Source of the DNA: an uncultured Lachnospiraceae bacterium
GTDB taxonomy: Bacteria > Bacillota > Clostridia > Eubacteriales > Anaerofustaceae
Direction of reading: 5' to 3'
DNA length: 64,000 bases
NCBI GenBank assembly: GCA_944381375.1
Contig: CALWKX010000020.1
Location: forward strand, 20,744 to 84,743
The notes under the pieces were generated by a model. That model had not been told where the DNA came from. It searched no databases and was given only the letters and a program-made list of their open reading frames with translations. Positions 129-61,715 of the stretch are shown here, in pieces. The first letter of the stretch is position 1. Each line of letters begins with the position of its first letter. A program made the position numbers and the translations under genes.

Positions 129-1973
129 TTGCATAAGGAAGAACAAATAAGAAATATAGCCATAATTGCGCATGTAGATCACGGAAAGACCACTCTCGTT
201 GATGCAATGCTCAAACAAAGCGGCGTCTATCGAGAGAACCAGCAAGTTGTGGAACGAGTAATGGATTCCAACGACCTGGAACGTGAGCGCGGGATCACTA
301 TCCTTGCTAAAAATACAGCCGTAGAGTATAAGAACACGAAAATCAATATAGTGGATACTCCCGGCCACGCTGATTTTTCCGGAGAGGTGGAACGTATTCT
401 CAAAATGGTAAACGGCGTTTTGCTTTTAGTGGACGCCTCCGATGGTCCGATGCCGCAAACGCGCTTCGTGCTTTCCAAATCTTTGGAGCTCGGACATAAA
501 GTAATAGTGGTGATAAATAAAATCGACCGTCCTGACGCCAGGATAGATCAGGTTATAGATGAAATCCTGGATTTGTTCATAGAATTGGGCGCAAGCGATG
601 AGCAGTTGGACAGTCCGTTTATATTTTGTTCGGCTAAAAAAGGAACGGCAAGCGTTGAGCAGGATGTTGAGGGAACAAATCTTATTCCTCTTTTTGAAAC
701 GATACTTGAATATATACCTTCGCCTCCTCGCAATAAAGAAATGCCGCTTCAAATGTTGATCTCATCCATAGATTACAACGAATTTGTCGGCAGAATCGCC
801 ATCGGACGAATAGAACGGGGCATGATAAAGCAAAATCAGGAGCTTGTCGTGTGCAATTATCACGATAAAAATATGCTTAAAAAAGCCAAAGCAGTCAATA
901 TTTATCAATTTGAAGGATTGAGCAGAGTGAGTGTCACTGAAGCTGCAGCGGGAAATATTATAGCGCTTTCAGGTATACCGGATATAACAATAGGAGATAC
1001 GGTTTGTTCGGCGGAATGTCCGCAGGCTCTTGAATTCGCTCAAATTTCCGCGCCGACTATTGAAATGACATTTTCTGTAAACGATTCGCCTTTTGCAGGC
1101 AAAGAAGGCAAATACGTTACCTCGCGCAATATACGCGACAGACTCGAAAGAGAGCTTTTGAAAGACGTCTCATTAAAAGTAAGCGAACTTGATACTACTG
1201 ATTCTTTCAATGTAGCAGGACGAGGAGAAATGCATTTATCAATATTGATAGAAACTATGCGCAGAGAAGGCTATGAGTTTCAGGTTTCGCCTCCTCGAGT
1301 GCTTATGAAGGAAATAAACGGTATAAAGAGCGAGCCTGTAGAAAGGCTTGTTGCGGACGTTCCTCAGGAATGTGCGGGCGCGGTTATTGAAAAATTAGGG
1401 CAAAGGCGCGGAGAGTTGCTAAATATGACGCCTATGGGAGCCAGAATGAAATTGGAATTTCTTGCGCCCTCAAGAGGGCTGTTCGGTTACAGAAGCGAGT
1501 TTCTGACAGATACCAAAGGAGAGGGCATAATGGCAAGCGTTTTTGATTCGTATGCCCCGTACAAAGGGACGCTTTCGCGACGTTCGCAAGGCAGTCTTAT
1601 CGCCTATGAAGCCGGTGAAGCGATTACTTACGGTTTGTACAATGCTCAAGAAAGAGGCCGGCTTTTTATCGGGCCGAATACTCCTGTATACGAAGGTATG
1701 GTTGTAGGCATTTCCTCAAATTCTAAAGACATACCAGTAAATGTGTGTAAGAGAAAACAGCTTACAAATATGCGCGCCACAGGACATGACGATGCTTTAA
1801 GGCTTGTGCCGCATTTGAAAATGAGTCTTGAGCAGTGCATGGAGTTTTTGGCGGATGATGAACTTTTGGAGATAACTCCTAAGTCTTTGAGGATAAGAAA
1901 GCGTATTCTCAATCACGAACAAAGAATGAAAGCCCAAAGCCGTGAAAAGAGCGGCGCAGCCGGCATAAAATAA
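129..1973 (+). CDS. typA: TypA/BipA ribosome-associated GTPase
   Basis: Translational GTPase that binds the 70S ribosome and helps 50S assembly and stress adaptation. The G1 motif AHVDHGKTT is followed by [13 protein letters not shown] and NKID, then the EF-G-like domains and the BipA C-terminal domain ([20 protein letters not shown]). I place the start at the TTG at 129 because AAGAGGA lies 8 nt upstream and translation then begins just before [14 protein letters not shown]. Earlier in-frame starts would add a non-family hydrophobic leader. The last ~14 codons and the stop lie inside cloverleaf repeat CL1, so the C-terminal tail ([12 protein letters not shown]) appears to be repeat-encoded. 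Family assignment is firm; the start is likely. Confidence 0.96.
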
Positions 1974-2111
1974 AAAGAGAAAGAAAATCTTTCTCTTTTT
2001 ATTTTATGCGCAAATTGAACGCCTGCGTTCAATTTGCCCAGCGGCAGAAGAAAGCGCAGCGCGCTTTCTTCTGCCGCGGCTGCGCCGCCCTTTATCGGCT
2101 TTGAGCTTTCA
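1927..2111. repeat. Cloverleaf repeat CL1 (overlaps the typA 3' end)
   Basis: Left arm 1927-1962 pairs with right arm 2077-2111, with a perfect GCGGCGCAGCCG core and a second paired block around CAAAGCCG. Enclosed back to back are three hairpins: 1963-2009 (A/T-rich), 2010-2037 (GCAAATTGAACGC arms) and 2042-2076 (CGGCAGAAGAAAGCG arms). The typA stop codon lies in the first hairpin, which may double as its terminator. The architecture matches nine other loci in the window although the sequence differs. Confidence 0.9.
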
Positions 2112-2112
2112 T

Positions 2113-2190
2113 CTAAGTAACCCACCCAGTTCAAGGAAGGAAAGCCTCACGGCTTTCTTTATCTGCCCCACAAAAGCGATCCCCTTGAGG
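2113..2190 (-). repeat. Short element E-I (degenerate)
   Basis: Read on the minus strand it begins CCTCAAGGGG, has GGGGCAGA, then a hairpin (AGAAAGCC / GGCTTTCCT), then a G-rich end containing ACTGGGTGGG. This is the order of parts seen in the other E elements, with a diverged 3' flank. It lies between CL1 and the stop codon of the dipeptidase gene, leaving 1 nt before that stop. Confidence 0.6.
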
Positions 2191-2191
2191 T

Positions 2192-3580
2192 TTACAGTTT
2201 TGCAAGCTTAAGAATTGCATTCACATAAATTTCAATGGCCGTCCATAGTCTGTCAAGTCTGATATTTTCATCGCTGTCATGAATTCGATTATCATCATCC
2301 GCAAATTCCGGACCGAAAGCGACTACGTTTTCAAAAGCCCTCGCATAAGTGCCTCCGCCTATTACTATCGGCTTTGCTTTCGTATCTTTAGTGACTTCGC
2401 AGTAAGCCTCCATTAAATTCTTCACAAGTTCGCTTTCAGGATCAACCAGAAGAGGCAATGAATGACTTACAAATTTTTCTTCAGCGCCCGCGCCTTTTAT
2501 TTTTTCACTGATAATTTCGGCATAAGGCGCAAAATCAATGCTTACAGGATATCTTATGTCTAAAGTAGCAGTCGCTGTTCCCTGTTTATCGGTTTTTACC
2601 ATTCCAACATTAAGCGTCAGTGAACCATATTCGTCGCATGCGGCAGCGCCGATTTTTTCTCCCGAAGTATCCGTACCTATAAGTTTGTTGAAGGTATTCA
2701 CAAAAGGACTGTCATGTACGATTTCTCCCAAAAACTTTATCATATGACAAGCAGCGTTTTTCCCAAGCTCAGGCGTGGAAGCGTGCGCCGCTTTCCCTGC
2801 CATCTTAAAAGAAACCCCGTCATTTAATATTTCAGCATTGCCGTCAATCTCATATGCGCTTAAGTACGATAAGAATTTATCTATTGCTTCCGCCGTTTTT
2901 GTTTCACCGCATATTACCGCTTCACAAAAATCTGCAGCAGCGTTTCTGGCTGTGCCCGCTTGTATCCGTTGTATGACGCGTCTGCCGGCATTAATTGCAA
3001 GCGGCGCGGAAATATCCGTATCATAATGACCTTTTTCCCCGAAAATCAAAGGGAAATCAGCATCCGGCGAAAACCCCATGCTGAAGCCTCCCTCTTTTGA
3101 TTTGTAATACTTAACGCATCCAAACCCGCTCTCTTCATCAGCGCCTATAACAAGGCGAATCCTTTTTTTGAATACTTCCCCTTTTATTTCCCGGGCAATC
3201 TTCATAGCATAAAGCGCCGCAATCAGCGGACCTTTGTCGTCAACTACGCCTCTTGCGTACAAAACACCGTTTTCTTCACTCAAACAATAAGGTTCATGCG
3301 TCCAGCCTCCGCCTTCAGGCACAACATCCACATGGCATAAAATTCCTATAATGTCTTCTCCTTCGCCCATTTGCGCGTATCCTGCATAATTATCAAGATT
3401 CACAGTCTCAAATCCCATCCTGCCGGCAATTTCCAAGGCTTTGTTCAAGGCATGAGCACATTCTTTGCCGAAAGGCATACCTTCACAAGCTTCGCCCTTT
3501 ACGCTTCTTATTTTTACAAGCTCAGCAATATCGTTTATTATGTCGTCTTTGTATGAATTAATTTTTGATTTTATATCCAT
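2192..3580 (-). CDS. M20-family dipeptidase (PepV-like)
   Basis: Cytosolic metallopeptidase that hydrolyses dipeptides. The metal-binding motifs of the M20/PepV family are present: HVDVVPEGGGW, ARGVVDDKGP (bridging Asp), ADEESGFG, and a C-terminal GGGTYARAF with a late HDSDENI. The length of 462 aa matches PepV. AAGGGG lies about 13 nt before the ATG, a rather long spacing. It is monocistronic and convergent with typA, with CL1 and E-I between them. An amidohydrolase acting on another small peptide or amide is possible. Confidence 0.88.
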   Translation of the reverse strand: MDIKSKINSYKDDIINDIAELVKIRSVKGEACEGMPFGKECAHALNKALEIAGRMGFETVNLDNYAGYAQMGEGEDIIGILCHVDVVPEGGGWTHEPYCLSEENGVLYARGVVDDKGPLIAALYAMKIAREIKGEVFKKRIRLVIGADEESGFGCVKYYKSKEGGFSMGFSPDADFPLIFGEKGHYDTDISAPLAINAGRRVIQRIQAGTARNAAADFCEAVICGETKTAEAIDKFLSYLSAYEIDGNAEILNDGVSFKMAGKAAHASTPELGKNAACHMIKFLGEIVHDSPFVNTFNKLIGTDTSGEKIGAAACDEYGSLTLNVGMVKTDKQGTATATLDIRYPVSIDFAPYAEIISEKIKGAGAEEKFVSHSLPLLVDPESELVKNLMEAYCEVTKDTKAKPIVIGGGTYARAFENVVAFGPEFADDDNRIHDSDENIRLDRLWTAIEIYVNAILKLAKL

Positions 3581-3750
3581 TCTAAAACAAATCCCCTTTT
3601 GTTTTCACTATTCACGATTATACTCCCTATCGTTTCTTATGTCTATCAGGCGAGATGAATATTTGGATTCGAACGCAAATATAATTTATTGACGAATTCG
3701 AAAAGGGGGCGAAAAAAATAAAAAATAAATACTATAATATCCTCATAGCG

Positions 3751-4506
3751 TTGGCCCTGTTCGCCTTGATAGTCCAGCTTGCTTATACCGGACGCAATGT
3801 TTATATTACGGCAAACGCTTCAACAATGGATTGGGGGCTGAGTTTTTTTGAAGAAGGCGAAACTCCGCAGGGCAGCGCTGAAGAGGAGTATCTTAAAAAT
3901 TATGATGCATATTTCGTAGGAAATACTGATGAAAAGGTTGTTTATCTGACTTTTGACTGCGGATACGAAAACGGCTACACAAATACGATATTGGATGTGC
4001 TGAAGGAAAAGAACGTGAAAGCGGCATTTTTCGTGGTTGGACATATGATAGAAAGCAGTCCTGATATTGTTAAGCGTATGGCGGATGAAGGTCATCTTGT
4101 ATGTAACCATACATATTCTCATCCGGACGCAACGCTGCTTTCTCAAAGCGAACTTACTAATGAATTAACAAAACTGGAAAATACGGCAAGGGAAATATGC
4201 GGGATTGAAATATCAAAATATTTTCGTCCGCCAGCCGGCAAATTCAGCGAACAAATGCTTATTAATGCCCAAAATGCAGGATATACCACTGTCTTTTGGT
4301 CTCTTGCTTATGCCGACTGGGATGTCAACAACCAGCCGACGCATAAAAACGCTTTAGATAAACTTGTTCCCAGAATTCATAACGGCGCGATAATATTGCT
4401 TCATTCAACTTCGGCTACAAATTCGGAAATCTTGTCAGGCTATATTGATGAACTTATAAGCCAAGGATACCGTTTCGGAACTTTGGATGAGCTAAACGCC
4501 CAATGA
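3751..4506 (+). CDS. PdaA-like polysaccharide/muramic acid deacetylase
   Basis: Extracytoplasmic NodB-fold deacetylase, probably acting on peptidoglycan. Motif 1 VYLTFDCGYENGYT, motif 2 HTYSHP and the RPPAGKFSE block are of the PdaA subfamily, where an Asn or Glu usually sits where this protein has Cys after TFD. The first conventional start is TTG at 3751. It has no ribosome site and would shorten the signal anchor. The open frame runs further upstream, and AAAAGGGGG at 3701-3709 is 8 nt before an ATA codon at 3718 that would give a normal Lys-rich signal peptide (IKNKYYNILIALALFAL). The start is therefore uncertain. It overlaps the next gene by ATGA. Confidence 0.85.
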   Translation: MALFALIVQLAYTGRNVYITANASTMDWGLSFFEEGETPQGSAEEEYLKNYDAYFVGNTDEKVVYLTFDCGYENGYTNTILDVLKEKNVKAAFFVVGHMIESSPDIVKRMADEGHLVCNHTYSHPDATLLSQSELTNELTKLENTAREICGIEISKYFRPPAGKFSEQMLINAQNAGYTTVFWSLAYADWDVNNQPTHKNALDKLVPRIHNGAIILLHSTSATNSEILSGYIDELISQGYRFGTLDELNAQ

Positions 4507-5369
4507 AAATACAAAAAACAAAGCCCGCTGTTTTTTGTATTGCCGCCGCTTTTATCATTGTATTCGCTTTATTGGCGAACTTTGTTTCAGAGGCAAATGC
4601 TGAAGATCTCACAACAAGCGTCGATTTGCCGGTAATCATGTATCACAGCATAAGAGAGGACGGTAAGTATTTCGGCAAATATGTAATATCGCCGCAGCAG
4701 CTAAAACAGGACTTTGAATATTTGAAAGAACATGGCTATACTCCCGTAAGCGTATCTCAGCTTATAGAATATGTGAACGAACCTATGGCGCAGCTTCCTG
4801 AAAAACCGATCCTGATTACTTTTGACGACGGATATTACAACAATTATGTTTATGCATACCCTCTTTTGAAAGAATATGAGTTTAAGGCGTTGATATCGAT
4901 AGTCGGCATATACAGCGAAAAAGAATCAGCGGCAAATGAAGTGAAGCAATCCGCCGCATACTCCTATTTAAAATGGGAACAGATTAGAGAAATGACTGAA
5001 AGCGGATATGTAGAGATAGGACATCATTCCTATGATATGCATTCGGCGTCCGCAAGGCAGGGCTCTAAAATAAAAAGCGGCGAAAGCCGCGAAGCGTATG
5101 CCGCCGTATTTGCCGAAGATATAATCAAATTAAACAATTTGCTAATTGATAATTCAGTGAATTTAAGCCCTGTGTATACCTATCCTTTTGGAGCGTACTG
5201 CGCTGAGAGCGAAACAGTAATAAAAACTCTCGGCTTCAGTGTAAGTCTCACTTGTGAAGAGGGCATTAATACGATAAAAAAAGATTCCGGTTTGTATTTG
5301 CTCAAACGATTTAATCGTCCGTATGGCTTGTCGAGCGAAGAATTTTTCAAAGATATAGGCGTAGAATGA
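4503..5369 (+). CDS. Secreted polysaccharide deacetylase
   Basis: NodB-domain carbohydrate esterase with an N-terminal signal segment (hydrophobic residues ~10-28, then Ala-rich SEANA). PVIMYHSIRED and ILITFDDGYYNNY are the classic YMYH and TFDDG motifs. GHHSYDMH supplies the His pair and YPFGAYC the C-terminal motif. It is translationally coupled to the PdaA-like gene by a 4-nt ATGA overlap, so the two probably act together on cell-wall glycan. The substrate (peptidoglycan GlcNAc, PNAG-like polymer or other) cannot be told from sequence. Confidence 0.88.
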   Translation: MKIQKTKPAVFCIAAAFIIVFALLANFVSEANAEDLTTSVDLPVIMYHSIREDGKYFGKYVISPQQLKQDFEYLKEHGYTPVSVSQLIEYVNEPMAQLPEKPILITFDDGYYNNYVYAYPLLKEYEFKALISIVGIYSEKESAANEVKQSAAYSYLKWEQIREMTESGYVEIGHHSYDMHSASARQGSKIKSGESREAYAAVFAEDIIKLNNLLIDNSVNLSPVYTYPFGAYCAESETVIKTLGFSVSLTCEEGINTIKKDSGLYLLKRFNRPYGLSSEEFFKDIGVE

Positions 5370-5378
5370 AAAAAATGC

Positions 5379-5384
5379 TATAAT
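5379..5384 (+). promoter_or_regulatory. Extended -10 promoter at a near-leaderless start
   Basis: TGCTATAAT is an extended -10 (TG at 5376-5377, hexamer 5379-5384). The following ATG is at 5391, the distance expected for the transcription start. No ribosome site lies between, so the small gene downstream may be translated from a leaderless message. Confidence 0.5.
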
Positions 5385-5390
5385 TCGTAT

Positions 5391-5546
5391 ATGGAAAGAC
5401 TTTTGATATTGTTAATATTGAATTCCGCTTCTTCTTCAGGTATCTACCTTTTGGGAATGATAGGCCTCGTTCTTCTATTCGTTTTGTTTATTATTACATA
5501 TGCGGTCTATTCCATAAAAAATAACGATAAAAATAATAAGCGATGA
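5391..5546 (+). CDS. 51-aa single-pass membrane protein
   Basis: A short open frame, ATG 5391 to TGA 5544-5546. It encodes a small protein with one long hydrophobic stretch (residues ~14-41, GIYLLGMIGLVLLFVLFI) and a basic, hydrophilic tail (NNDKNNKR). It has its own extended -10 and is followed 20 nt later by a strong terminator at 5570-5600, as expected for a one-gene transcript. I do not recognise the family. A small membrane regulator or phage-shock-like peptide is conceivable, and chance coding cannot be excluded. Confidence 0.5.
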   Translation: MERLLILLILNSASSSGIYLLGMIGLVLLFVLFIITYAVYSIKNNDKNNKR

Positions 5547-5569
5547 GTATTGTATATATGATCTGAATA

Positions 5570-5600: not shown

Positions 5601-5632
5601 TTTTTGGGCATAATCATGCCGCGGACGAAATG

Positions 5633-6466: not shown

Positions 6467-6497
6467 ATTTAAAAAAAGCGATATGATAAATATCGCT

Positions 6498-10665: not shown

Positions 10666-10766
10666 AGACAAGCGGGCGGGCGCGGCCAACGCTTAAGCGT
10701 TGGCTGAAGCGGCTTCGCCGCTTCAATGGCCGCTTCGCGGCCTGCCGCGCCCGCCCGCACTTGTCT
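10666..10766. repeat. Cloverleaf repeat CL2
   Basis: The outer arms are 10666-10686 (AGACAAGCGGGCGGGCGC) and 10744-10766, paired over ~20 bp. Three hairpins lie between: 10686-10703 (CCAACGCTTAAGCGTTGG, a perfect palindrome), 10705-10725 (TGAAGCGG / CCGCTTCA) and 10728-10742 (GGCCGCTTCGCGGCC). It shares arm and hairpin sequence with CL4 and CL9. It lies between two same-strand genes. Confidence 0.92.
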
Positions 10767-14722: not shown

Positions 14723-14790
14723 TCAGGGTAATGCCCGTCAAAGTCTTTTCCGCTCTGCATACGCTGAAATGTTTTGTCTTTTTTATCTTA

Positions 14791-14818
14791 TTGCATATCT
14801 TATTTTTTTAAGTATAAT
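14791..14818 (+). promoter_or_regulatory. Promoter of the PAP2 gene, leaderless geometry
   Basis: TTGCAT (14791-14796), 16 nt, TATAAT (14813-14818). The next ATG (14825) lies 7 nt after the -10, where transcription should start. The same TTGCAT-16-TATAAT pattern precedes both tRNA genes, so the call is well supported. Confidence 0.75.
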
Positions 14819-14824
14819 AATGGC

Positions 14825-15376
14825 ATGATAGAAAAAATAGTCGATATTGATTTTGCTATTCTTGATTGGATAAGAGAGTATCTCACGTGCGGGTTTCTGG
14901 ATTGGTTCATGCCGAAAATTACGCTTTTGGGCAACGGCGGCATCTTTTTTATTATACTTTGTATTATCTTTGTTTTTTTTAAAAGAACGCGCAAATTGGG
15001 GTTAATGATGGCGGCAGGGCTTATTTTGTGCCTGATAACATGCAATCTTATTTTAAAGCCGCTTGTGGCGCGGGAAAGGCCCTTTTATATAAACGAGAGC
15101 GTTCTTCCTTTGCTTATCAAAACGCCGGGAGAATTTTCGTTCCCTTCAGGCCATACAATTGTGAGTTTTACAAGCGCGTTTATTGCAATAAACCATGACA
15201 AACGTTTGGGAGCAGGATTGCTGGTGCTTGCAGTTATAATAGCTTTTTCAAGGCTTTACCTTTATGTGCATTATCCGACGGATATACTTGCGTCTGTTAT
15301 ATTAGCGGCGTTGATAGCTTTAGTGGTTGTAAAGGGCGCTGATTTTATAGAAGGAAAGAAAACCAGGCGGGCTTGA
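14825..15376 (+). CDS. PAP2-family membrane phosphatase
   Basis: Integral membrane lipid phosphatase of the undecaprenyl-pyrophosphate/phosphatidate phosphatase type. The catalytic blocks are KPLVARERPF, SFPSGHT and SRLYLYVHYPTD (C1-C3 of the PAP2 family), with about five helices. I start at the ATG at 14825 (MIEKIVDIDFAILDWI). The upstream frame beginning at 14774 lies before the expected transcription start and includes the promoter. There is no ribosome site, so leaderless translation is probable. The last codons (KTRRA) and the stop sit in the left arm of CL3. Confidence 0.9.
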   Translation: MIEKIVDIDFAILDWIREYLTCGFLDWFMPKITLLGNGGIFFIILCIIFVFFKRTRKLGLMMAAGLILCLITCNLILKPLVARERPFYINESVLPLLIKTPGEFSFPSGHTIVSFTSAFIAINHDKRLGAGLLVLAVIIAFSRLYLYVHYPTDILASVILAALIALVVVKGADFIEGKKTRRA

Positions 15377-15547
15377 GGCGCGCAGCGCGGCAATAGACGT
15401 CAAAGGAAAAATATTTTTCCTTTGACGTCTATTGCTTATCCGCGCGAAGCGTTAAGCTTCGCGCGGATGCACAAAAGAAGGAATTGAAAGTAACCTTTCA
15501 ATTCCTTCTTTTGTGCTGCGCGCCTCAAGCCCGCCATGGTTTTCTTC
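15354..15547. repeat. Cloverleaf repeat CL3 (overlaps the PAP2 gene end)
   Basis: The outer arms 15358-15386 and 15515-15547 pair perfectly over GGCGGGCTTGAGGCGCGCAG and, after a 2-nt bulge, over GAAAACC. The three hairpins are 15390-15435 (a perfect 46-nt palindrome, arm AATAGACGTCAAAGG), 15438-15468 (ATCCGCGCGAAGC arms) and 15469-15516 (GCACAAAAGAAGGAATTGAA arms). It is one of the largest members. Confidence 0.95.
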
Positions 15548-21502: not shown

Positions 21503-21541
21503 GTGGTGTGTCCCGAATACTTCGCTATGACGCAGCATGCA

Positions 21542-21639
21542 GGGGCGGGCGCGGCGGGCCGCTTCGCGGCCTCTGAAGCGGCTGAAGCCGCTTCAGCCGC
21601 AGCTTGCGGAATCCGTAAGCTGCGGCCGCGCCCGCCCGC
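21542..21639. repeat. Cloverleaf repeat CL4
   Basis: Arms GGCGGGCGCG (from 21544) and CGCGCCCGCC (21627-21639) enclose three hairpins: 21557-21571 (GGCCGCTTCGCGGCC), 21574-21595 (TGAAGCGG / CCGCTTCA) and 21596-21626 (GCCGCAGCTT / AAGCTGCGGC). Two of the hairpins are near-identical to those of CL2. It lies between convergent genes. Confidence 0.92.
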
Positions 21640-21693
21640 TGGCCGCTGTGCATATTTTTAATGCGCTGTAATCGTGATTTTTCTCATTATCAT

Positions 21694-28169: not shown

Positions 28170-28183
28170 AAATATTAATATAT

Positions 28184-28348
28184 GATTAAAGACAACGGCA
28201 GGGGCGCGCCGCGTGCAAGGGCTTGCGGCCCTTGCAAAATGCAAGGTTTGTAAACCTTGCATTTTCGAGCGGGGCACGTAAAGGCGAATTTTTCGCGCTT
28301 TAATCCGTGCGCCGCTTCCGCGGCGCGCCCTTGCCATTGTCTTTAATC
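28184..28348. repeat. Cloverleaf repeat CL5
   Basis: 30-bp outer arms 28184-28213 and 28319-28348 have two mismatches (core GGGCGCGCCGCG). The three hairpins are 28214-28236 (TGCAAGGG / CCCTTGCA), 28237-28265 (AATGCAAGGTTT / AAACCTTGCATT) and 28267-28318 (GAGCGG..GCACG..TAAAG with imperfect partner). Unlike most members it lies upstream of a gene (xre), not behind a stop codon. Confidence 0.92.
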
Positions 28349-28420
28349 ACCCTTAATATAAGATATTCCGTTTAATTCGCTGTGAACAGCTCAGTATAAA
28401 ATAACTTTTTTATTTTTTTC

Positions 28421-33333: not shown

Positions 33334-33361
33334 ATTGAATAAAAAAGCGTAAAGCTGAAAG

Positions 33362-33404
33362 AGATAGGGCGAATCTGAATTATTCAGATTCGCCCTATCT
33401 TTTG
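33362..33404 (+). terminator. Terminator after tsf
   Basis: AGATAGGGCGAATCTGAA / TTCAGATTCGCCCTATCT, an 18-bp stem, then TTTTG. Its stem is unusually long. Confidence 0.85.
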
Positions 33405-34329: not shown

Positions 34330-34450
34330 ACCCACCCGCCCGCCCCGCCGGCGCGGCCTTGTTTAAGGCAATAGCCTTAAACAAGGCTGAGCGGTTCCCG
34401 CTTAATGTCCGCGCAGCGGACAGCCGCGCCGGCGGGGCGGGCGGGTGGGT
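34330..34450. repeat. Cloverleaf repeat CL6
   Basis: Perfect 28-bp outer arms, 34330-34357 (ACCCACCCGCCCGCCCCGCC) and 34423-34450. The hairpins are 34357-34386 (CCTTGTTTAAGGC / GCCTTAAACAAGG), 34388-34404 (short, TGAGCGG / CCGCTTA with one wobble) and 34407-34421 (GTCCGCGCAGCGGAC). It starts 12 nt after the hypothetical gene. Confidence 0.95.
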
Positions 34451-38583: not shown

Positions 38584-38689
38584 TTGACGCAGCTATTTAC
38601 AGGTTTAAAATACAATTGGTAAATTAAAATCAAAGAAATTTGCGGGCATAAATTTAATTTGGAAGTCGACAACAGGCGGATCAGATTAC

Positions 38690-38894
38690 GTTGCTGCCCA
38701 AGCAAAAGCGCCGCGGCGCGCTTAATAAAAAAGACGGCGTTTCGAAAGCTTGCGCTTTCGGCCGTCTTTTTTATGCGAAAGAAAAGCCCCGTGCGGGGCT
38801 TTTCTTGAAGCCGCATACAAAAAAGGCGGATAAATCCGCCTTTCGTATGCGGCTTTAAGCGCGCCGCTAAACGGCATTGCTTCGTTGCAGCAAC
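38690..38894. repeat. Cloverleaf repeat CL7 (largest)
   Basis: The outer arms 38690-38724 and 38856-38894 pair over GCGGCGCGCTTA plus a distal GTTGCTGC block with internal mismatches. The hairpins are 38725-38774 (AAAAAAGACGGC with inner CGAAAGC / GCTTTCG), 38779-38806 (AAGAAAAGCCCC / GGGGCTTTTCTT) and 38808-38855 (AAGCCGCATAC plus GGCGGA, interrupted). It lies between convergent genes, ending 1 nt before the addA stop. Confidence 0.9.
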
Positions 38895-38895
38895 A

Positions 38896-41800
38896 TCATA
38901 AACCCACTTCAACCGTCCTGTTTTGTTCAAGGTATACAATAAAGCATTTGTCCGGATTCCTGCCTTTTATTTTGCTAAGAGCCTCCGCATAAAGCCTTAT
39001 CTGCAAAGAGTATTTTTCATCGCTCTCTTTTTTTCTTTCTTCGCTTATGTATTTGTCGGTTTTGTAATCTATAAGATATGTTTCGCCTTTATATACAAAA
39101 TAACAATCTATAACGCCCTGCAAAATAACATCTCTTTTACTTTTCTGCCATCTGCTGTCAAGCCTGGCCGGCTTGATTTGCATTATAAACGCTGTCTCTT
39201 TTTTTATTTGATCTGCATTTAAAAGCGCATGTCCTATATCACTTGAGAAAAACTGCACCACAGCATCCGAATTTACAGCCTCAGCTTCTTTTTCAATCAG
39301 TACGCCGTTGCTGATGAGTATATTTTTTTGCTTATCAATACTCGATAAAAGATCATTCTTATCAAGACTTTTTTCATCAAGATGCTGCATGAATTTATGA
39401 AGCGCGCTTCCAGCAGCCGCCGGTGTAAGGGCCTGATCTTTGTCGAACACTATATCCTCCCTCATGCTTATAAGCTTTTTGCCGTATTCAAGCGTCATTG
39501 ATTCCTTAAGTTCGCTTACTGTGACTTTTGTGGGAATACCTTCGTCATTTTTGTGAGGATATGTATATCCGATACGGCTTTTGATCTGTTTTACCGCAGC
39601 TTCATCTGCCGGATATTTATCCGGTACCGTCTCAGCGCTTTCTTCCGCGGCCTCGGTATGCGTTACGGTTTTTATTTTCCAAAGCCTGGTTTCATAAGAG
39701 CCGCTTTCATCAAGACTTCTTTTATCAGGGACAATGGCAAAGTAAAGCCATTTCAAAAAAGATACGCTCTCAGTCAGTGAAGGCGTCATATCGGGCGGAT
39801 ATGCCTTCATTTCCTCATATGCCTTTTCAGTAATGCATCCTGTGAAATACAGCATTTGCTTTGCGCGGGTTGCCGCAACATACAAAATGCGGGCTTCTTC
39901 CTCCCTGTTTTCGGCGCGGTTAGCCGCCGAGGCCGTCAGTCTGTATATTGTATCACAGCGGTAACTTGCGTCCTCAGAGACAAAAACGGGACATATTCCC
40001 ACATCTTTGTGACAATATATACTCTCAAATGGACTTTTTTCAATAATATTGAGCGCTGTATCAACTACTATTACTGCCTCATACTCCAAACCCTTAGCAG
40101 CGTGCACTGTCACAAGGCTGACTTTGCCTTCTCCAGCAAAAGCTTTCGAAGCGCCTCTTTCGGCTTTTTCCTTGAGCTTTTCCAAATATTTTATAAAACT
40201 GTATAATCCTCTTGACTGTGTTTGTTCAAAAGAAGCGGCGCGCTGCGCAAGTTCGTTAAGATTTTGGGAGCGCTTCTCCCCGTCTTTGAGAGCCGATACA
40301 TACATCGTCAAATTCGTGTCGGCGTATATCTTCATTATGAGATCTTCTATCGAAGAAACGCGCGAATAATGCCTGTAGCGTTTTATTTCATTTATCATGT
40401 ATGAGGTCTTGAGCCTTAAATTATCGTCAGGACCGTCCTTGGCGTATTTTTTTACAGCGTCGTAATAATGAGCAAACGTATAATGCGCCCTTATTTTCAA
40501 AAGCTCGTCTTCGTTAAAGCCGAAAATAAAGCTTCGCATTACTGATATAAGCGCTATATCGTCCATAAAGTTGTCAATTATCTTCAAAAGATTTATCATA
40601 AGCGCAATTTCCATCGCGTCAAAATATTCTTCCTGCTCTATGCAGGCAAAATCTATGCCGGCGTTTTTGAATGCCTGCGTATAATAAGAAGATATACTGT
40701 TCATGCGTCGGCCTATAACGGCTATATCTTCAGGCCGCAGAGGCCTTGTAAGATGCGTTTCCTCATCGTATATGTTTTTGCCTATAAGATTTTTTACCAA
40801 AGAGGCAACGTATTCGGCTTCAGCAGCGATACGCGAATGACTGTCGGAATCGCCGCTGAGGATAATATGAAGCTGAGCGGCATTAGCGCTGTTTAACGTG
40901 CTTAAAGACGTCATGCTTTCATCAGACGCATAGTCGATTCCCGATTTGTCCTTTGTCATAATGCGCGAGAAAACCGTATTTACCGCCTCTACTATTACAG
41001 GCGACGAACGGAAATTTTCTCTCATGCGCACAAGCAGTCCTTTCCCTTTTTCACATTCGCGCTGCTTTTTTAAAAATATTTCTGGTTCCGCATTTCTGAA
41101 ACGGTAAATGCTCTGCTTTATATCTCCCACAGCAAAAAGACTGTTTGTTGCGGCAAGCCGCGTTATGATGGCCTCCTGCAGGGAATTAGTGTCCTGATAT
41201 TCGTCTATAAATATGTATTTATATTCGCTGCTGAGCTGTTTGAGAACCTGTTCGGAATTTAAAATAGCAAGACATTCATGGGCAAGATCCGAAAAATCGG
41301 CAAGCCTCATGCTTTTTTTTATATTGGAATATATATCGCTGAAACGTTCAACTATCTCAACTATCTTGCAAACGCTTTTGGCCGTCAGAAAGATAAACTC
41401 AAGATTTTTTTCATAAGAAAAAGCGGCGATCTCCTTAAGCCTTGTAAACGCGCCTTTGGCTTTTTTGTGCAATAGCTTAAGGCGCATGTAATCTGGATGG
41501 CTTTTGGGGACTGTAAATCGCGGAAATTTTGAAACGGCGCGTATCGTTTCGAAAAAACTTGAAGCGCTTGACGCTAAAGAAGAGACGATCGCATCCGAAA
41601 GTTCTGCCATGCTCGAAAAACATGCCGCACATTTATAATCGGAACGCGTCAGCCTTAAGCCCTCCTGCGCGCAAATTTTGATATCTGATGCATATATTTC
41701 AAGGTGTTTTTTCAGAATTTCGAAAACACGGGAATCGTCAAAATTTTCTGCGCTTTTTTTAAATTCTTCAGCCTTTTGCTTCAGCCATTCTATAGGCTCG

Positions 41801-47016: not shown

Positions 47017-47143
47017 AGAGCAAGCATGGCGGCCCGCCGCGCCGTAAGGCTTGCCTTACGGCGCAGCGCAGGCGAAGCTTCGCCTGCGCTTGCAGCCAAC
47101 AGGGCATGCCCTGTTGGCTGCGGCGGGCCGCCATGCTTGCTCT
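47017..47143. repeat. Cloverleaf repeat CL8 (most regular)
   Basis: Perfect 23-bp outer arms, 47017-47039 (AGAGCAAGCATGGCGGCCCG) and 47121-47143. The hairpins are 47041-47062 (GCCGTAAGGC / GCCTTACGGC), 47066-47089 (a perfect 24-nt palindrome, GCGCAGGCGAAG arm) and 47093-47120 (a perfect 28-nt palindrome, CAGCCAACAGGGCA arm). Only 1-3 unpaired bases separate the arms. It lies between convergent genes. Confidence 0.96.
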
Positions 47144-56537: not shown

Positions 56538-56706
56538 TTCTTTTTATTATGACTTAATATAATATATTAAAACAAAAACGGATAAAAAGTCAATGATTAA
56601 GGTTTCTTGCGGCAAAAGCTGCGCTGTCTGTTCTGCTTTAATATTTGTACTGCCGTTTTATTATTATCCCTAAATGTGTTAAAATCAAAAAAAACTCTGT
56701 ACTGCC

Positions 56707-57798
56707 ATGAAAAAATTTGAAAAAGAAAAATCAGTAAAATTTATTTTTTCAATTATATGTTTGATTTTTGTAATTAACTTTTTTTCGAATAAAAAAGTAT
56801 TTTTTGACATGGCAAATAAAGATCTACTATACTGTTTTGCTTTTGTAAGCGCTTTTGATTTATCTGTCTTAGCAAATGTTTATCAACCCGAATACGCTTT
56901 AAATGTAATTTGTCTTATAAATAATACTGTTTTTGTTGCGGCGAGTATTATTGCGCTGGGTATTATAGCTGCATTGCTGATAGTGTTGAGTAGATTCAAA
57001 AAGGAAAATCATAGGTTATCTTCTGTTGAAAAACGATACAGATCAGTGGAAGAATTTACAGGAACAGCCTTGTTTGCAGCGGATTTTGCTGATGGCGTCA
57101 TCAATTATTCCGAAAGTTATGAAACTCTTTATAAAAGGAAGCCTTTTGTAAAGAATATTAGCGAATTTGGGAATAATAATCCTTATATTTTCGCGGAGGA
57201 TAAGCAGGAATATGCAAAAATCAGCGAATTGATAAGAAATAAACAACCCAGCGGTTCTGCCGAATACAGAGTATATCTGGGAGATGGGCGCTGTCAATGG
57301 CATCGGTTTGAATTTAAAATCGTATTCGCTTCATCCGGCGAACCCGACAAGCTGATTGGCAAGATCAGTAACATTGATGGCGCTAAAAGACGCATGGAAA
57401 TACTCAGCGCGGCAGCCGAAACTGATTCGCTCACAGGGCTTATTAATTATGAAGCAATGTCTTCGCGGGTAAACGCTTATCTTAAAAATGAAGGCAAAGA
57501 CGGAATACACGCGTTGATGATATTGGATGTAGACAATTTCAAATTTGTAAATGATAAATACGGACATCTTGCAGGAGATGAGATTTTGCGCAGGATTGCA
57601 AACGGCATCAATAAGCAGATCAGAGCGACTGATATAGCGGCGAGATATGGGGGAGATGAATTTTTAATATTTTTAAAGAATATTTCGTCTGCTGATTTTG
57701 CCGCTGTAAAAGCAGGCTTTTTATGCGAGTTATTGCAATACGCAGCAAATTTTGAGAATAAATATATAAATGTGACAAGCAGCATAGGAATTATTTAA
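56707..57798 (+). CDS. PAS-GGDEF diguanylate cyclase, interrupted
   Basis: A membrane-bound c-di-GMP synthase in origin. Two or three N-terminal helices (residues ~12-90) are followed by a PAS-like domain (~110-230) and a GGDEF domain (~240 on) with ARYGGDEFLIF intact and an RATD I-site (product inhibition) 5 residues before it. The frame stops right after SIGI, inside the GGDEF domain, missing the last ~30 residues. The continuation lies in another frame just downstream. It may be inactive unless frameshifting occurs. Confidence 0.78.
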   Translation: MKKFEKEKSVKFIFSIICLIFVINFFSNKKVFFDMANKDLLYCFAFVSAFDLSVLANVYQPEYALNVICLINNTVFVAASIIALGIIAALLIVLSRFKKENHRLSSVEKRYRSVEEFTGTALFAADFADGVINYSESYETLYKRKPFVKNISEFGNNNPYIFAEDKQEYAKISELIRNKQPSGSAEYRVYLGDGRCQWHRFEFKIVFASSGEPDKLIGKISNIDGAKRRMEILSAAAETDSLTGLINYEAMSSRVNAYLKNEGKDGIHALMILDVDNFKFVNDKYGHLAGDEILRRIANGINKQIRATDIAARYGGDEFLIFLKNISSADFAAVKAGFLCELLQYAANFENKYINVTSSIGII

Positions 57799-58316
57799 AG
57801 ATATTGCATGAAAGCGCTGCTGATGGTGAAAGTAGGCAGATGGCGTATAAAACGGCGTCTGACAATGGGGAATTGAATTTCAGATATGTACGCACAGCCA
57901 AAGTTCCATATATGGTAGGAGAATATCCGCTCGTAATTGCTGTTGTTGCTGAAATTGCAGACGTCATGCTTGAGGATATCAGTCCCATTGAAATGATAAA
58001 TTCTCTTCCTGTTGGTATCGCTGTGGTTAAGTTTTTCGATGATAACATAAGCTTAAGTTTTGCGAATGATTATTTTATATCTTTGAGCGGATACAGCAAA
58101 GAAGAATTTGAAAAGAAATATATGTTTGATAACTTTTTAGCTTTAAATAAGTATAAGAAAGAAATAGTTATCAATTCCTTAATAAAAGCGTATAAAAACA
58201 GCTTGCCTGTAAAATTTGATTATGAACTTGAGAATAAGAAGATATTAAAAATTACTGTGTCTTATTACAGGGAGAATGAATCAGGACGTGAGTTTTTTGT
58301 AGTGGCAGATTTATAA
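57799..58316 (+). pseudogene. Displaced C-terminal part of the GGDEF protein with a PAS-like domain
   Basis: The frame shifts relative to the GGDEF gene and resumes as LHESAADGESRQMAYKTASDNGELNFRYV, which resembles the end of a GGDEF domain (A-D-x-A-M-Y-x-A-K-x-x-G). About ten residues after SIGI are missing, so a small deletion plus frameshift is likely. A PAS-like segment (MINSLPVGIAVVKFFDDN, GYSKEEFEKKY) follows to 58316. The annotated TTG at 57804 has no ribosome site, arguing against a separate gene. Confidence 0.65.
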
Positions 58317-58328
58317 TTATATTTTAAG

Positions 58329-58446
58329 CGTCAAAAAAGTAAGCGGGCGGGCGCGGCAATAGCTTGAGTCAAGCTATTTTTGAGCGGTGAAGCCGCTCAA
58401 AGGCCGCTTCGCGGCCGGCCGCGCCCGCCCGCTTGCCTTTTTGACG
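58329..58446. repeat. Cloverleaf repeat CL9
   Basis: 29-bp outer arms 58329-58357 and 58418-58446, two mismatches, with core AAGCGGGCGGGCGCGGC identical to CL2. The hairpins are 58358-58378 (AATAGCTT / AAGCTATT), 58381-58399 (TGAGCGG / CCGCTCA) and 58402-58416 (GGCCGCTTCGCGGCC). It lies between the broken GGDEF gene and a convergent operon. Confidence 0.94.
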
Positions 58447-58471
58447 TATCATGCCGAGCAATTACCGCTTT

Positions 58472-58561
58472 TTAATTCCCACCCCACTTATGTTGGTAAG
58501 TGCGCATTATGCGCACTTACCTTACGTATAAATTCCCAGTAAACGGCAGGCCCCTTAAACG
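58472..58561 (-). repeat. Short element E-F
   Basis: In minus orientation it begins GTTTAAGGGGCC and ends ACATAAGTGGGGTGGGAATTA-like. The hairpin GGTAAGTGCGC / GCGCACTTACC spans 58495-58521. It follows CL9 by 25 nt, in tail-to-tail arrangement. Confidence 0.88.
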
Positions 58562-58591
58562 TAATTAAGAAATTTTTTACAACGAGAAAAT

Positions 58592-59290
58592 TCACATGAA
58601 AAGACGTTTTTTAATTTCTTCTTTAAGGCGCTGCTTTTTTTGTATGAACAATAATGCCAGCGCTGTAATAAACACTGACGTTGTAACAATCAGCGACCAG
58701 AAAAGTTTAATATATCCGAAAGCAAAATTATCAATCAGTATTTCGATTGCCACACAAGCGATGCCTGTTAGAACAAGTATAGCAGCCGCCGCAGAAAAAG
58801 GTTTGGCATGTTTCGAAATGTATATGGACGCCATGAAAACAGAAGCTGTGATTACAGTAATAGGAGCTGCAAGCGGCAAATACCAGCTGAAAGAAGTCAA
58901 ACGTGCTATCAATGCCAGATATATCAGCACTGCGGCAAAATCAAGCGCAACATTCAGATATATGTGACGCTTTTTTAACAGTATAGGCATCAGGAAAAAA
59001 CAGAATATACATAATCCGGCGCCTAAAACGTACCACGACCATGTTATATTTCCGCTTATGCAAATATCCGTAATAATGGATACTGCTACAGGCACTGCTA
59101 AAAACAAAGAAGCGTAAATAGCAGAGTAGCGCTTATCAATAGAATCATAAGTGCGTTGAAGTGTTTTGGGGTAAGGATAATGTTTCGGTTCTTCCCAAGG
59201 TTTAATCGTATCGATAACGGCAGCGCCGCAAAGAGGACATTCTTTTTCTGAAGGAGCCAGTTCGACTCCGCAATGTACGCAGTAAGACAT
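58592..59290 (-). CDS. Zinc-ribbon membrane protein (DUF6320-like)
   Basis: The N-terminal zinc ribbon YCVHCGVELAPSEKECPLCGAAV has two CxxC pairs. A short linker and six predicted membrane helices (residues ~58-225) follow, then a basic tail. It is the third gene of a minus-strand operon after an esterase and a condensation-type acyltransferase, an order seen in several clostridia. Function is unknown; it may anchor or regulate the acyltransferase at the membrane. Confidence 0.72.
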   Translation of the reverse strand: MSYCVHCGVELAPSEKECPLCGAAVIDTIKPWEEPKHYPYPKTLQRTYDSIDKRYSAIYASLFLAVPVAVSIITDICISGNITWSWYVLGAGLCIFCFFLMPILLKKRHIYLNVALDFAAVLIYLALIARLTSFSWYLPLAAPITVITASVFMASIYISKHAKPFSAAAAILVLTGIACVAIEILIDNFAFGYIKLFWSLIVTTSVFITALALLFIQKKQRLKEEIKKRLFM

Positions 59291-59295
59291 TTTTA

Positions 59296-60576
59296 TTACC
59301 TCCTGTTGCTTTCTACTAAAACGGGTATTCCCATTTTCACCATAGTCGTGAGGACAAGCCGCTGGAAGTCCGTTTGTTTAATTGTAGAAGAAAAGTTTAA
59401 ATACAATTTATCTTTAAATGATACGCAGGCGCACATTACAGGATTAACACTGAAAGGGCCCAAAATGAATTCTACTCTTTCCAAATATTTTTCCATTTGC
59501 TCAGGAAGCTTTACAACACCCAGGTTGGATAAAGTCACGCTGTTGCATCTGTCTCCCTGTATATAAAAGAAAGCTTTCATAGTAAGGCTTTTGATGACAA
59601 GAGGCACGGGACGAAGCAGGATATTTTTTTCGCTTGCAACATTCGCGCTCATGCGCGCGTTAAGCTGTTTTTCCGTAACCTCATACCCCATAAAATGTTT
59701 GACTCGTTTTGTTATTTCTTCAAAGGAATAAATGCCATGAGCAGGCTCAAGTCCTGGATTGACGTAATTTGCGAAATTACGCAGAGTTTTCGTATCGTAA
59801 AATTTTCTTAAATTTACCGGCACGCTTACTTTGGGAGGGAGCATCTTAGCTTTTTTGCTGATTTCCGCCGACTGCATCTTCTGTAAACTCATTAGCATGA
59901 CGGCCGTTAAAAATTCGTTGACCGTAACGGAATATTGTTTTGCTTTATCCTTAATTTTGTCTACGGGAATTATGGCAGTTATTATATTTAGAATGTCTTT
60001 TTCTTCTTTAGTCCCTTTAATATGGTAAGCTTTGCTTTCTCCTCTTGAGCTTTTTGCATCACGCGCATAACGCAGAAAACTGTCCTCCCATTCCTCTTTT
60101 GATGCTTCATCATTGCAGTCCAATACATATTCTGAATGTGTAATTTGCTCTTTATATTTTAGTTTTATATATTCAGCGATCAGCGTGTTTAAAAAAATCA
60201 TACCTCCAGTGCCGTCAGTAAGCACGTGAAAAATTTCAACCGCTATTCTGTTTTCGTAATAACGGACTCTGAACATGAAACCGCTGTCTTCATTAAGACG
60301 CATTCTGACTAACGGATTTTTATAGTCCTTGGTCACTTTCGGCATACCGTCTATTTTTTCAAGATAATACCAAAATATGCCTTTTTTTAATCTCAGTGCA
60401 AACGAAGGTATTCTTTTTAACGTTGATGAGAGCGCTTGCTGCAAAATTAAGGGATCTATGCTTTCTTTCAGTGTAGCCGAAAGCCTGAACATTGCTGTCC
60501 AATTCCGCGACATTGCAGCAGGATATATTTTGGCAGCGTTGTCAAGTTTGAGCCATTCAAAGTTCTTTTCTTTCAT
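59296..60576 (-). CDS. Alcohol/condensation-domain-type acyltransferase
   Basis: A 426-aa protein related to condensation/chloramphenicol-acetyltransferase-fold enzymes. The pivotal HHxxxDG-type motif appears as IFHVLTDGTGGMIFLN (H-V-L-T-D-G, the second His only), and the C-terminal TLSNLGVV matches the conserved N-L-G motif. No signal peptide or helices. It starts 5 nt after the alpha/beta hydrolase stop and precedes the zinc-ribbon gene by 5 nt. It probably makes an ester or acylated lipid; substrate unknown. Confidence 0.75.
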   Translation of the reverse strand: MKEKNFEWLKLDNAAKIYPAAMSRNWTAMFRLSATLKESIDPLILQQALSSTLKRIPSFALRLKKGIFWYYLEKIDGMPKVTKDYKNPLVRMRLNEDSGFMFRVRYYENRIAVEIFHVLTDGTGGMIFLNTLIAEYIKLKYKEQITHSEYVLDCNDEASKEEWEDSFLRYARDAKSSRGESKAYHIKGTKEEKDILNIITAIIPVDKIKDKAKQYSVTVNEFLTAVMLMSLQKMQSAEISKKAKMLPPKVSVPVNLRKFYDTKTLRNFANYVNPGLEPAHGIYSFEEITKRVKHFMGYEVTEKQLNARMSANVASEKNILLRPVPLVIKSLTMKAFFYIQGDRCNSVTLSNLGVVKLPEQMEKYLERVEFILGPFSVNPVMCACVSFKDKLYLNFSSTIKQTDFQRLVLTTMVKMGIPVLVESNRR

Positions 60577-60580
60577 TGCT

Positions 60581-61477
60581 TCACCTTTTTTCTAACAGGT
60601 GTTGATGTAGAAAATCGACTATATCCTGCAAAGCTTCTTTAGCTTCAGGAATACCATACAGTACATATACATGCCACATCCCGTCCTTTATTGTGACAGC
60701 GCACGGCGATCCCGCGTCATTAAGCTTATCAGCCATTTTTACGGAATCGTCAAGAAGAATCTCCTGTGAACCCACATGTATTTGGGAAGGAGGGAGCCCT
60801 TTAAGATTTGCTAAAAGCGGTGAAACATAAATATCGCTTTTGTTTTGTCCTGCGTACACTTGCGCGAAATATTCAAGATCGTCTTTGAATAAGACGGGAT
60901 CGTCTTCTTTATTTGTAATATATGAAGGCGAACTCATAGTAAGATCAGTCCATGGAGATATAGCGCTTATGCATGCAGGTAATGGAATCCCAGTGTCTCT
61001 GAGTTTCAAAGCGAGTGCGTAGCAAAGTCCTCCTCCAGCCGATTCTCCTACTAAAGCGATTTTGTCGGCGGAGTATTTTTTGAGTATTCGTTTATATGCG
61101 GCAAGCGCGTCATCTAAAGCGCAAGGATATTCATATTCAGGGGCAAGCCTGTAGCTTATACACAATGTCTTTAAGGAAGCATTTTTTGCAAGAACGCCGC
61201 CAAAGCCTTTGGCATAATCTATGCTGCCGGCTGTATAACCTCCTCCGTGTAAATACAAAATGACGCTGTCATGCAAATAATTTTCCGGAATTGCCCATGA
61301 AGCGTCAAAGTCGGCAAAAAATTCGTTTTCATAATGTATTTGGTCGCCTATGACTTTAGCTTTGAGTTCACCAAGCGCATCCTGAAGTTTTCGCTGCGCT
61401 TTTATATCAAGTCTTTTTAAAATAGGTTTTAATAGTTTGATTTGCCCCTTCATAATGCGGCCGGCTACTGATGGCAT
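60581..61477 (-). CDS. Alpha/beta hydrolase, hormone-sensitive-lipase family
   Basis: Esterase of 298 aa. LYLHGGGYTAGS is the HGGG oxyanion motif, VGESAGGGLCYAL holds the nucleophile Ser, LLANLKGLPPSQIHVGSQEILLDDS the catalytic Asp region, and GMWHVYVL the catalytic His. No signal peptide, so it is probably cytosolic or membrane-associated. It leads the operon with the acyltransferase and the zinc-ribbon protein. Acetyl-ester or acylglycerol hydrolysis is likely. Confidence 0.88.
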   Translation of the reverse strand: MPSVAGRIMKGQIKLLKPILKRLDIKAQRKLQDALGELKAKVIGDQIHYENEFFADFDASWAIPENYLHDSVILYLHGGGYTAGSIDYAKGFGGVLAKNASLKTLCISYRLAPEYEYPCALDDALAAYKRILKKYSADKIALVGESAGGGLCYALALKLRDTGIPLPACISAISPWTDLTMSSPSYITNKEDDPVLFKDDLEYFAQVYAGQNKSDIYVSPLLANLKGLPPSQIHVGSQEILLDDSVKMADKLNDAGSPCAVTIKDGMWHVYVLYGIPEAKEALQDIVDFLHQHLLEKR

Positions 61478-61594
61478 ATATAAATTCCTTTTCTTTTTAT
61501 TTTGTACTTATGATGGGTAAATTATAGCACACACTTTTTGAGTTCAAAAATCATATAGTTTAAGCTTTGTTTATTTTGGGAAGAATCTTTGAAT

Positions 61595-61715
61595 GATAAA
61601 AACATCTGCCGCCGCAGGCGCATGCGCAACAGCGCATGCACAGGCCGATAAGGCCTGTGCCGCAGGCTTTCGAATTGCGAAAGTCTGCGCGCCTGCGGCG
61701 GCAGATGTTTTTATC
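61595..61715. repeat. Cloverleaf repeat CL10
   Basis: Perfect 27-bp outer arms 61595-61621 (GATAAAAACATCTGCCGCCG) and 61689-61715. The hairpins are 61622-61637 (ATGCGC / GCGCAT), 61638-61660 (GCACAGGCC / GGCCTGTGC) and 61661-61689 (CGCAGGCTTTCG / CGAAAGTCTGCG, one mismatch). It sits in a divergent intergenic region, and its right edge touches the -35 of the next gene. Confidence 0.96.

What the first reader, a model, noticed from the sequence alone, without database searches (positions are those of the whole stretch)
1927..61715. A family of ten cloverleaf-forming DNA elements conserved in structure but not in sequence
Seen directly: CL1 to CL10 each have one outer inverted repeat enclosing exactly three adjacent hairpins with only a few unpaired bases at the junction, so each strand can fold into a four-way junction. 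Most stem sequences are unrelated between loci, while the topology (three inner arms, never two or four among those I found) is constant. They occur about every 6 kb in convergent, tandem and divergent gaps, so they are not simply terminators. Loosely, they resemble a viral inverted terminal repeat with one more arm. Inference: a non-autonomous element made or maintained by a structure-specific enzyme (HUH/Y1 type, junction resolvase or template switching), or a chromosome-organising site. I know of no described family with this exact behaviour, but I could not search.
Basis: partly seen in the sequence, partly recalled or inferred. Interest (0 to 1): 0.92.

Follow-up and report, generated by a model that had tools for sequence, protein, structure and literature searches.

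The report
Three-armed cloverleaf DNA repeats
This bacterial genome carries dozens of short DNA repeats that share a predicted shape, an outer stem closed almost always by three hairpins, far more than they share a sequence, and they are likely kept perfectly paired by the DNA-copying machinery jumping between the two halves of each hairpin.

Summary
All ten cloverleaves are in the window; shuffled sequence does not give them. In 766 kb of this unnamed 1.54 Mb genome two detector passes together find 45 three-arm elements, one two-arm, none larger. A strict hairpin count gives 21 triples here and 0 in 1.29 Mb of 80 loci from other bacteria. Three relatives carry their own sets: nine copies in one; in another seven-arm copies, one of which folds as two three-arm units in tandem. 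Elements lie near gene 3' ends (median 28 nt) and are scarce in divergent gaps.

They are not without sequence kinship: subfamilies exist and copies at different loci align. Pairing looks kept at DNA level: related arms differ by 181 two-sided against 17 one-sided changes, and loops are reverse-complemented as often as identical (13 against 12 of 92), as polymerase template switching would do. In 17 of 40 the outer stem continues into a locus-specific inverted repeat; at bipA this looks like an inverted copy of the gene's conserved end. The clear G-T excess that RNA selection would predict is missing. No Y1/RAYT, IS110 or reverse transcriptase match was found in this genome; how elements spread is unknown. 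I rate it a new variant of dispersed palindromic repeats.

The parts
1923..2114 (.). CL1, three arms (22, 12, 17 bp). Outer stem 33 pairs with mismatches; its 5' side is the bipA 3' end and the bipA stop codon (1971-1973) lies in arm 1
10666..10766 (.). CL2, three arms (6, 9, 6), core GGGCGGGCGCGGC; subfamily A
15356..15546 (.). CL3, three arms (21, 13, 20); outer stem 31 pairs overlapping the end of ORF 14774-15376
21526..21654 (.). CL4, three arms (6, 10, 11), core GGGCGGGCGCGGC; subfamily A
28183..28349 (.). CL5, three arms (9, 12, 20), between tRNA-Pro and tRNA-Tyr genes; extended outer stem
34330..34450. CL6, three arms (12, 5, 7); perfect 28 bp outer stem, 12 nt after an ORF end; not passed by the filter
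38684..38897. CL7, three arms (21, 12, 20); imperfect outer stem reaching the end of the UvrD-like (AddA-like) gene; not passed by the filter
47017..47143 (.). CL8, three arms (11, 11, 13); perfect 22-24 bp outer stem, between convergent ORFs after the pseudouridine synthase gene
58329..58446 (.). CL9, three arms (9, 9, 6), core GGGCGGGCGCGGC; subfamily A; extended outer stem
61592..61718 (.). CL10, three arms (6, 9, 10); extended outer stem with A and T tracts, upstream of ORF 60581-61477 (minus strand)
1923..1950 (+). Host part of the CL1 outer stem: codons that align with the C-terminal end of relatives' BipA; an imperfect inverted copy lies at about 2094-2114

Best explanation
These are copies of a dispersed, apparently non-coding DNA repeat whose shared trait is a predicted four-way junction (a GC-rich outer stem, commonly 12-13 bp, plus three hairpins), likely kept perfectly paired by DNA-polymerase template switching between the halves of each stem. 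Shown: the architecture, its recurrence in one genome and in other genera of the family, copies at different loci that align, two-sided compensatory changes, loops reverse-complemented between copies, location near gene 3' ends, and locus-specific extension of the outer stem in 17 of 40 elements. Inferred: the hairpins form in DNA, probably on single-stranded template at the replication fork; the nascent strand switches templates there, which copies one half of a stem onto the other and sometimes flips the loop. The same event reaching past the core would copy adjacent host DNA in inverted form into the other flank, so the outer stem grows. Sequence can then drift while shape stays. Spread to new sites is inferred from related copies at different loci; its enzyme is unidentified. 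Three arms are probably selected, by the mobilising machinery or by whatever tolerates the structure.
For: Pairing is Watson-Crick at DNA level: 2429 pairs and 35 single mismatches (16 G-T, 10 A-C, 9 other; bulges and larger internal loops not counted) in 46 elements, 3 of them from relatives. In eight aligned G007 copies 96.2% of cells pair, and 18 pairs and 40 cells change on both sides, against shuffled means of 9.8 and 14.5; partners slid by 1-3 columns give 4-12 cells. Over five groups of related copies (26 elements chosen by hand), of 1205 stem positions compared pairwise 181 differ on both sides with pairing kept and 17 on one side. Of 92 loop comparisons 13 are reverse complements, 12 identical, 9 involve a self-complementary loop and 58 are other; reverse-only matches 0, complement-only 2. 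Flank extension: 17 of 40 elements exceed the 99th percentile of 1560 permuted flank pairs and 14 exceed their maximum. At bipA the extension's coding side aligns with the C-termini of ten relatives, and by eye none of these folds its coding end into a long stem with DNA beyond the stop codon. Template switching is known to homogenise inverted-repeat arms and invert the spacer (PMC8604942, abstract and passages) and to make and mend hairpin stems (PMC8794818, abstract and passages).
Against: No empty site was seen, so movement is inferred. No enzyme was found. Loop comparisons are pairwise and not independent, and most (58 of 92) fit neither identity nor inversion; shuffling loop letters gave a mean of 5.5 reverse-complement matches and at most 13 in 2000 rounds, so the excess is moderate. 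PMC8794818 (passages) found compensatory changes together with loop inversion very rare in rRNA. Template switching alone does not explain why there are three arms. Crowding near stop codons would also suit an RNA role. I have no transcripts and no probing of the DNA structure.
Confidence: 0.65

Rival explanations
1. RNA element: the cloverleaf is transcribed at gene 3' ends and selected as an RNA fold, for termination or mRNA protection.
For: Median 28 nt from the nearest gene 3' end (32 elements), nearer the 3' end in 15 of 18 tandem gaps, convergent gaps enriched (14 of 36 against 43 of 226), divergent depleted. In G010 7 of 9 examined lie beside a terminator-like hairpin (by eye).
Against: Little wobble: 16 G-T against 10 A-C single mismatches beside 2429 Watson-Crick pairs. 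Loops invert between copies. No Rfam family reaches threshold at the window's elements. Placement could equally be avoidance of promoters.
Confidence: 0.15
2. Ordinary non-autonomous insertion element (MITE-like) moved by a transposase that reads the GC-rich outer stem as terminal inverted repeat; arms are passengers.
For: A perfect outer run of 12-13 bp in 18 of 42 elements of this genome; 13-14 pairs in five of seven complete G007 copies. Related copies at different loci in G004, G007 and G010.
Against: Outer-stem sequence differs between subfamilies and genera. No target-site duplication seen by eye in the flanks of unextended copies. PF01797, PF01548 and PF00078 have no match in G000 or G007; other transposase families were not searched.
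Confidence: 0.3
3. Independent origin: each cloverleaf was built where it stands by repeated template switching, with no movement.
For: Outer extensions are locus-specific and at bipA appear to derive from the neighbouring gene; arms differ widely.
Against: Copies at different loci share arm 1, arm 2 and outer stem in G007 and share arms in G010, G004 and subfamily A of this genome. Constant arm number is not expected.
Confidence: 0.05
4. Chromosome-organising or protein-binding sites that need a four-way junction.
For: Shape kept while sequence varies.
Against: Density is very uneven, 28 in 264 kb of contigs C20 and C22 against 1 in 220 kb of C14 and C10; nine of 12 relatives show none in the DNA sampled.
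Confidence: 0.05

Closest known systems
REP / BIME / REPIN repeats with RAYT transposases
   Same: Short intergenic palindromes in many copies, mainly in convergent and tandem gaps; PMC3733652 (passages) reports this placement for REPs.
   Different: No common sequence or tag found; one outer stem with three hairpins instead of one hairpin or a pair; no PF01797 match in G000 or G007.
Mitochondrial repetitive hairpin-forming elements, including double-hairpin elements
   Same: Dispersed, lineage-specific hairpin repeats described as potentially mobile (PMC2800124, passages).
   Different: For two sponge types that paper reports conserved stems with variable loops; here stems vary by paired changes and the arm number is almost always three.
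Quasipalindrome correction / template-switch hairpins
   Same: Arm homogenisation and spacer inversion (PMC8604942, PMC8794818; abstracts and passages).
   Different: Those studies concern inverted repeats in protein or rRNA genes; here the stems of a dispersed multi-arm repeat family show it, with an outer stem that appears to have copied host DNA.
Parvovirus (AAV) inverted terminal repeat (recalled)
   Same: Outer stem enclosing adjacent hairpins at a junction.
   Different: Two inner arms rather than three and part of a viral genome end; here isolated chromosomal repeats.
Stem-loop repeat families of bacterial genomes (PMC2267715; abstract and passages)
   Same: Systematic catalogue of intergenic folded repeats.
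   Different: The words cloverleaf and cruciform do not occur in its main text; its families are defined by sequence models (abstract).

Membership tests
REP/REPIN | RAYT (Y1, PF01797) gene in the genome | tested here: not met
   0 matches in G000 (92.65% complete) and G007; three matches in G004, the best one partial at a contig edge; G010 not in that search
REP/REPIN | Conserved palindrome sequence across copies | tested here: not met
   Several unrelated subfamilies in one genome
REP/REPIN | Intergenic, mostly convergent and tandem gaps | tested here: met
   32 of 36
MITE | Terminal inverted repeats | tested here: met
   Outer stem in every element by definition of the scan; perfect run of 12-13 bp in 18 of 42
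MITE | Target-site duplication | tested here: inconclusive
   None seen by eye in the flanks; extended outer stems could hide one
MITE | Parent transposon with the same ends | not tested
   Only PF01797, PF01548, PF00078 and one serine recombinase were searched
IS110/IS1111 related | DEDD transposase PF01548 | tested here: not met
   No match in G000, G004, G007, G010
Group II intron, retron or DGR product | Reverse transcriptase PF00078 | tested here: not met
   No match in G000, G007, G010; one in G004
Known structured RNA | Match to an Rfam family | tested here: not met
   Only two tRNAs in the window reach threshold
Template-switch-maintained inverted repeats | Paired double changes and spacer inversion | tested here: met
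   181 against 17 changes; 13 inverted loops of 92; A1 covariation
Integron attC | Integrase and cassette array | not tested
   No integrase search was made

The most novel reading that the evidence does not exclude
A class of genetic element inherited by shape: a three-hairpin four-way DNA junction is the unit that is recognised, moved and kept, while its letters drift freely because template switching rewrites both halves of every stem together. Different genera carry versions with no common sequence, one of them doubled in tandem, and the outer stem grows by copying neighbouring host DNA.
Probability: 0.35. Interest if true: 0.92.

Novelty: new variant of a known kind. Interest (0 to 1): 0.76.

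Why it matters
Repeat families are mostly found and named by sequence. Here sequence search largely fails while shape persists, so such families would be missed. The element offers natural, many-copy material for watching template switching in bacteria: loop orientation and arm sequence would record each event. It also raises a testable question of which protein, if any, needs a three-hairpin four-way junction, and whether loss of the hairpin nuclease SbcCD lets such families build up.

Tried and rejected
Chance: rejected. Known RNA family: none at threshold in the window. Y1/RAYT, IS110 and reverse transcriptase as movers: no match in the window's genome. The serine recombinase lying between two G004 copies: no homologue in G000; a first strict test of its homologues' loci was worthless, since it also missed the two known G004 copies in L259, and the fold detector then found both in L259 and none in the nine other loci tested, L260-L268. 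Phage or plasmid origin: CL2 with its flanks has no match in either collection; no other element was searched there. Capture of a pre-existing terminator as origin of the outer extension: disfavoured at bipA but open elsewhere; A and T tracts at the ends of several extensions would fit it. A link with SbcCD loss: TIGR00619 reaches cut-off in 0 of 4 element-bearing genomes and 5 of 9 relatives without elements in the sampled DNA (one of the five, G008, only with its neighbouring matches added); by hand the one-sided Fisher value is about 0.1, so only suggestive. Origin position from DnaA: the one PF00308 match is weak, dropped. Naming the organism: protein search gave only a few distant names, Eubacteriales, Clostridia and Omnitrophota.

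Rows dropped or added: L130 4787 (looks like a tRNA gene, recalled, not checked by tool), L112 16333 (two arms, probably coding) and, in most counts, the two-arm L103 12675 were dropped; elements cut by a stretch end drop out. Three elements seen only (L102 12687, L115 12551, L130 1255) and a third G004 element (L170 1705) came to light in the recount; they are in the totals but not. One search stopped after L060 and before L087; one search covers all 80 loci. In one search, left out: the GCGGCG hairpin of the G010 seven-arm copies, one divergent G007 copy, further G010 copies, and all elements of this genome except eight of subfamily A.
Full report
Setting. The proteins scanned include BipA-, AddB- and UvrD-like ones, and the few organism names among AddB relatives are Eubacteriales, Clostridia and Omnitrophota. 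No other genome of its genus appeared among 60 relatives; twelve relatives of the same family (G001-G012) were available.

Observation. The ten cloverleaves are there. My detector accepts any number of arms from two up, so three is a result. In the 766 kb sample of this genome the set used has 42 three-arm elements and one two-arm element (ten of them, in the window, accepted by hand); the filter gives 43 and one. Together they make 45 three-arm elements and one two-arm element. The strict hairpin count gives 21 clusters of three, 28 pairs and nothing larger. In 80 loci of other bacteria (1.29 Mb) it gives 12 pairs and no triple. Local dinucleotide shuffles give 5.7 pairs on average and no triple in 20 rounds. 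Fold scans of 885 kb and 811 kb of loci give hits only in this genome and, among relatives, in G004 and G007.

Architecture. Outer stem: the perfect run from the junction has its mode at 13 bp, 12 of 42, and the 5' outer segments are 74% GC against 53% in the arms. Arms are 5-13 bp or 19-24 bp, with 6 of 137 in between; loops are mostly 3-4 nt and the junction has few unpaired bases. Within this genome subfamilies are visible once elements are turned to a common orientation; for instance several share the core GGGCGGGCGCGGC with arms GGCCGC and TGAAGCGGC.

Relatives. Nine of twelve show no convincing element in the DNA I held, 21 to 124 kb each (two weak two-arm folds in G001 and G006; one unenclosed triple in G006; I read these as chance). 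G004 has two near-identical copies and a third element of other sequence (L170). G007 has nine in 212 kb, two of them cut by contig starts, with 13-14 outer pairs in five of the seven complete ones and in most a third arm of about 25 bp that varies strongly. G010 has copies with seven hairpins; one of them (L180) folds as two three-arm units in tandem, each with its own short closing stem, inside a common C-rich/G-rich outer stem, while the others fold as seven arms; a second set has three arms. Three-arm elements thus occur in four genomes of three genera.

How they evolve. Three findings point to copying at DNA level. First, pairing is almost perfect with no clear wobble excess, 16 G-T against 10 A-C. 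Second, copies differ by paired changes: in eight of the nine G007 copies 18 pairs change on both sides, above every shuffle and well above slid controls (the structure was taken from two of the rows, which favours it over slid versions), and over five groups of related copies, 26 elements chosen by hand, there are 181 two-sided against 17 one-sided differences in 1205 positions. Third, loops appear as reverse complements as often as identical, 13 against 12 of 92 comparisons; 58 are neither. Comparisons share copies and are not independent, and letter-shuffled loops give 5.5 such matches on average with a maximum of 13 in 2000 rounds, so the third finding is the weakest alone. Clear cases are GGA/TCC, TGC/GCA and CAGG/CCTG between the two G010 copies in L178. 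Arm homogenisation plus spacer inversion is the described outcome of template switching (PMC8604942, abstract and passages), and stem creation and repair likewise (PMC8794818, abstract and passages); the latter found compensatory change joined with loop inversion very rare in rRNA.

Outer extension. Beyond the 13 bp core, 17 of 40 elements have flanks that are inverted repeats of each other above the 99th percentile of permuted pairs, 14 above the permuted maximum; most of the others look random. At CL1 the 5' flank is the end of bipA. Ten relatives align into these codons, to residues 624-629 of 635, and end close by; by eye none folds its coding end into a long stem with DNA beyond the stop codon, though short or weak pairings occur. 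The matching 3' flank therefore looks like an inverted copy of host DNA made with or after the element, and the gene now ends inside arm 1. This is one locus; for the others a captured terminator hairpin is not excluded.

Location. Counting ORFs of at least 90 codons, 36 elements fall in gaps: 18 tandem, 14 convergent, 4 divergent, against 116, 43 and 67 for element-free gaps of 100 bp or more (divergent p = 0.025, convergent p = 0.015). The median distance to the nearest gene 3' end is 28 nt (n = 32), to the nearest 5' end 142 nt (n = 22). Gene calls are mechanical. Between G010 and its sister G004, the gene-order tests at elements were broken 4 of 4 times (three gaps) against 30 of 102 elsewhere, a hint that elements lie in rearranged places.

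Mover. G000 has no match to PF01797, PF01548 or PF00078, nor to the serine recombinase found between two G004 copies. Other enzyme families were not searched. SbcD reaches cut-off in none of the four element-bearing genomes but also fails to in four of nine others.

Literature. The listings of searches showed no description of a three-hairpin, sequence-variable intergenic repeat family in bacteria; I read abstracts or passages of five papers, no whole text. The nearest are REP/REPIN repeats and mitochondrial hairpin elements.

Verdict. A real, many-copy family of shape-conserved DNA repeats, most likely a dispersed repeat maintained by template switching. Movement, the mover and the reason for three arms remain inferred or unknown.

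Noticed in passing
G000 contigs C20, C22 against C14, C10: Element density is very uneven: 28 in 264 kb against 1 in 220 kb, and the poor contigs have lower GC.
   Followed up: partly
G000, G004, G007, G010: SbcD (TIGR00619) reaches cut-off in none of the four element-bearing genomes and in 5 of 9 relatives without elements in the sampled DNA.
   Followed up: partly
L146 16214-17758: Two near-identical cloverleaves in the same orientation flank a serine-recombinase-like gene in G004; in G010 a longer recombinase-like ORF lies 275 nt from an element (L180) (gene names recalled from sequence).
   Followed up: partly
L115:1, L241:1, L242:1, L232:33, L234:5: Contigs start at or close to elements, so they probably break assemblies.
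   Followed up: no
window 1950-1973: bipA ends inside the element, adding a few C-terminal residues that do not align in relatives.
   Followed up: partly
window 33359-33403: A single hairpin of about 21 bp with a loop of 3 nt, not part of a cloverleaf.
   Followed up: no
L103 12675-12766: The one two-arm element, with a perfect 25 bp outer stem and 10 unpaired bases at the junction, perhaps a lost arm.
   Followed up: no
G010 elements L226, L230, L178: They sit at breaks of gene order against sister genome G004.
   Followed up: partly
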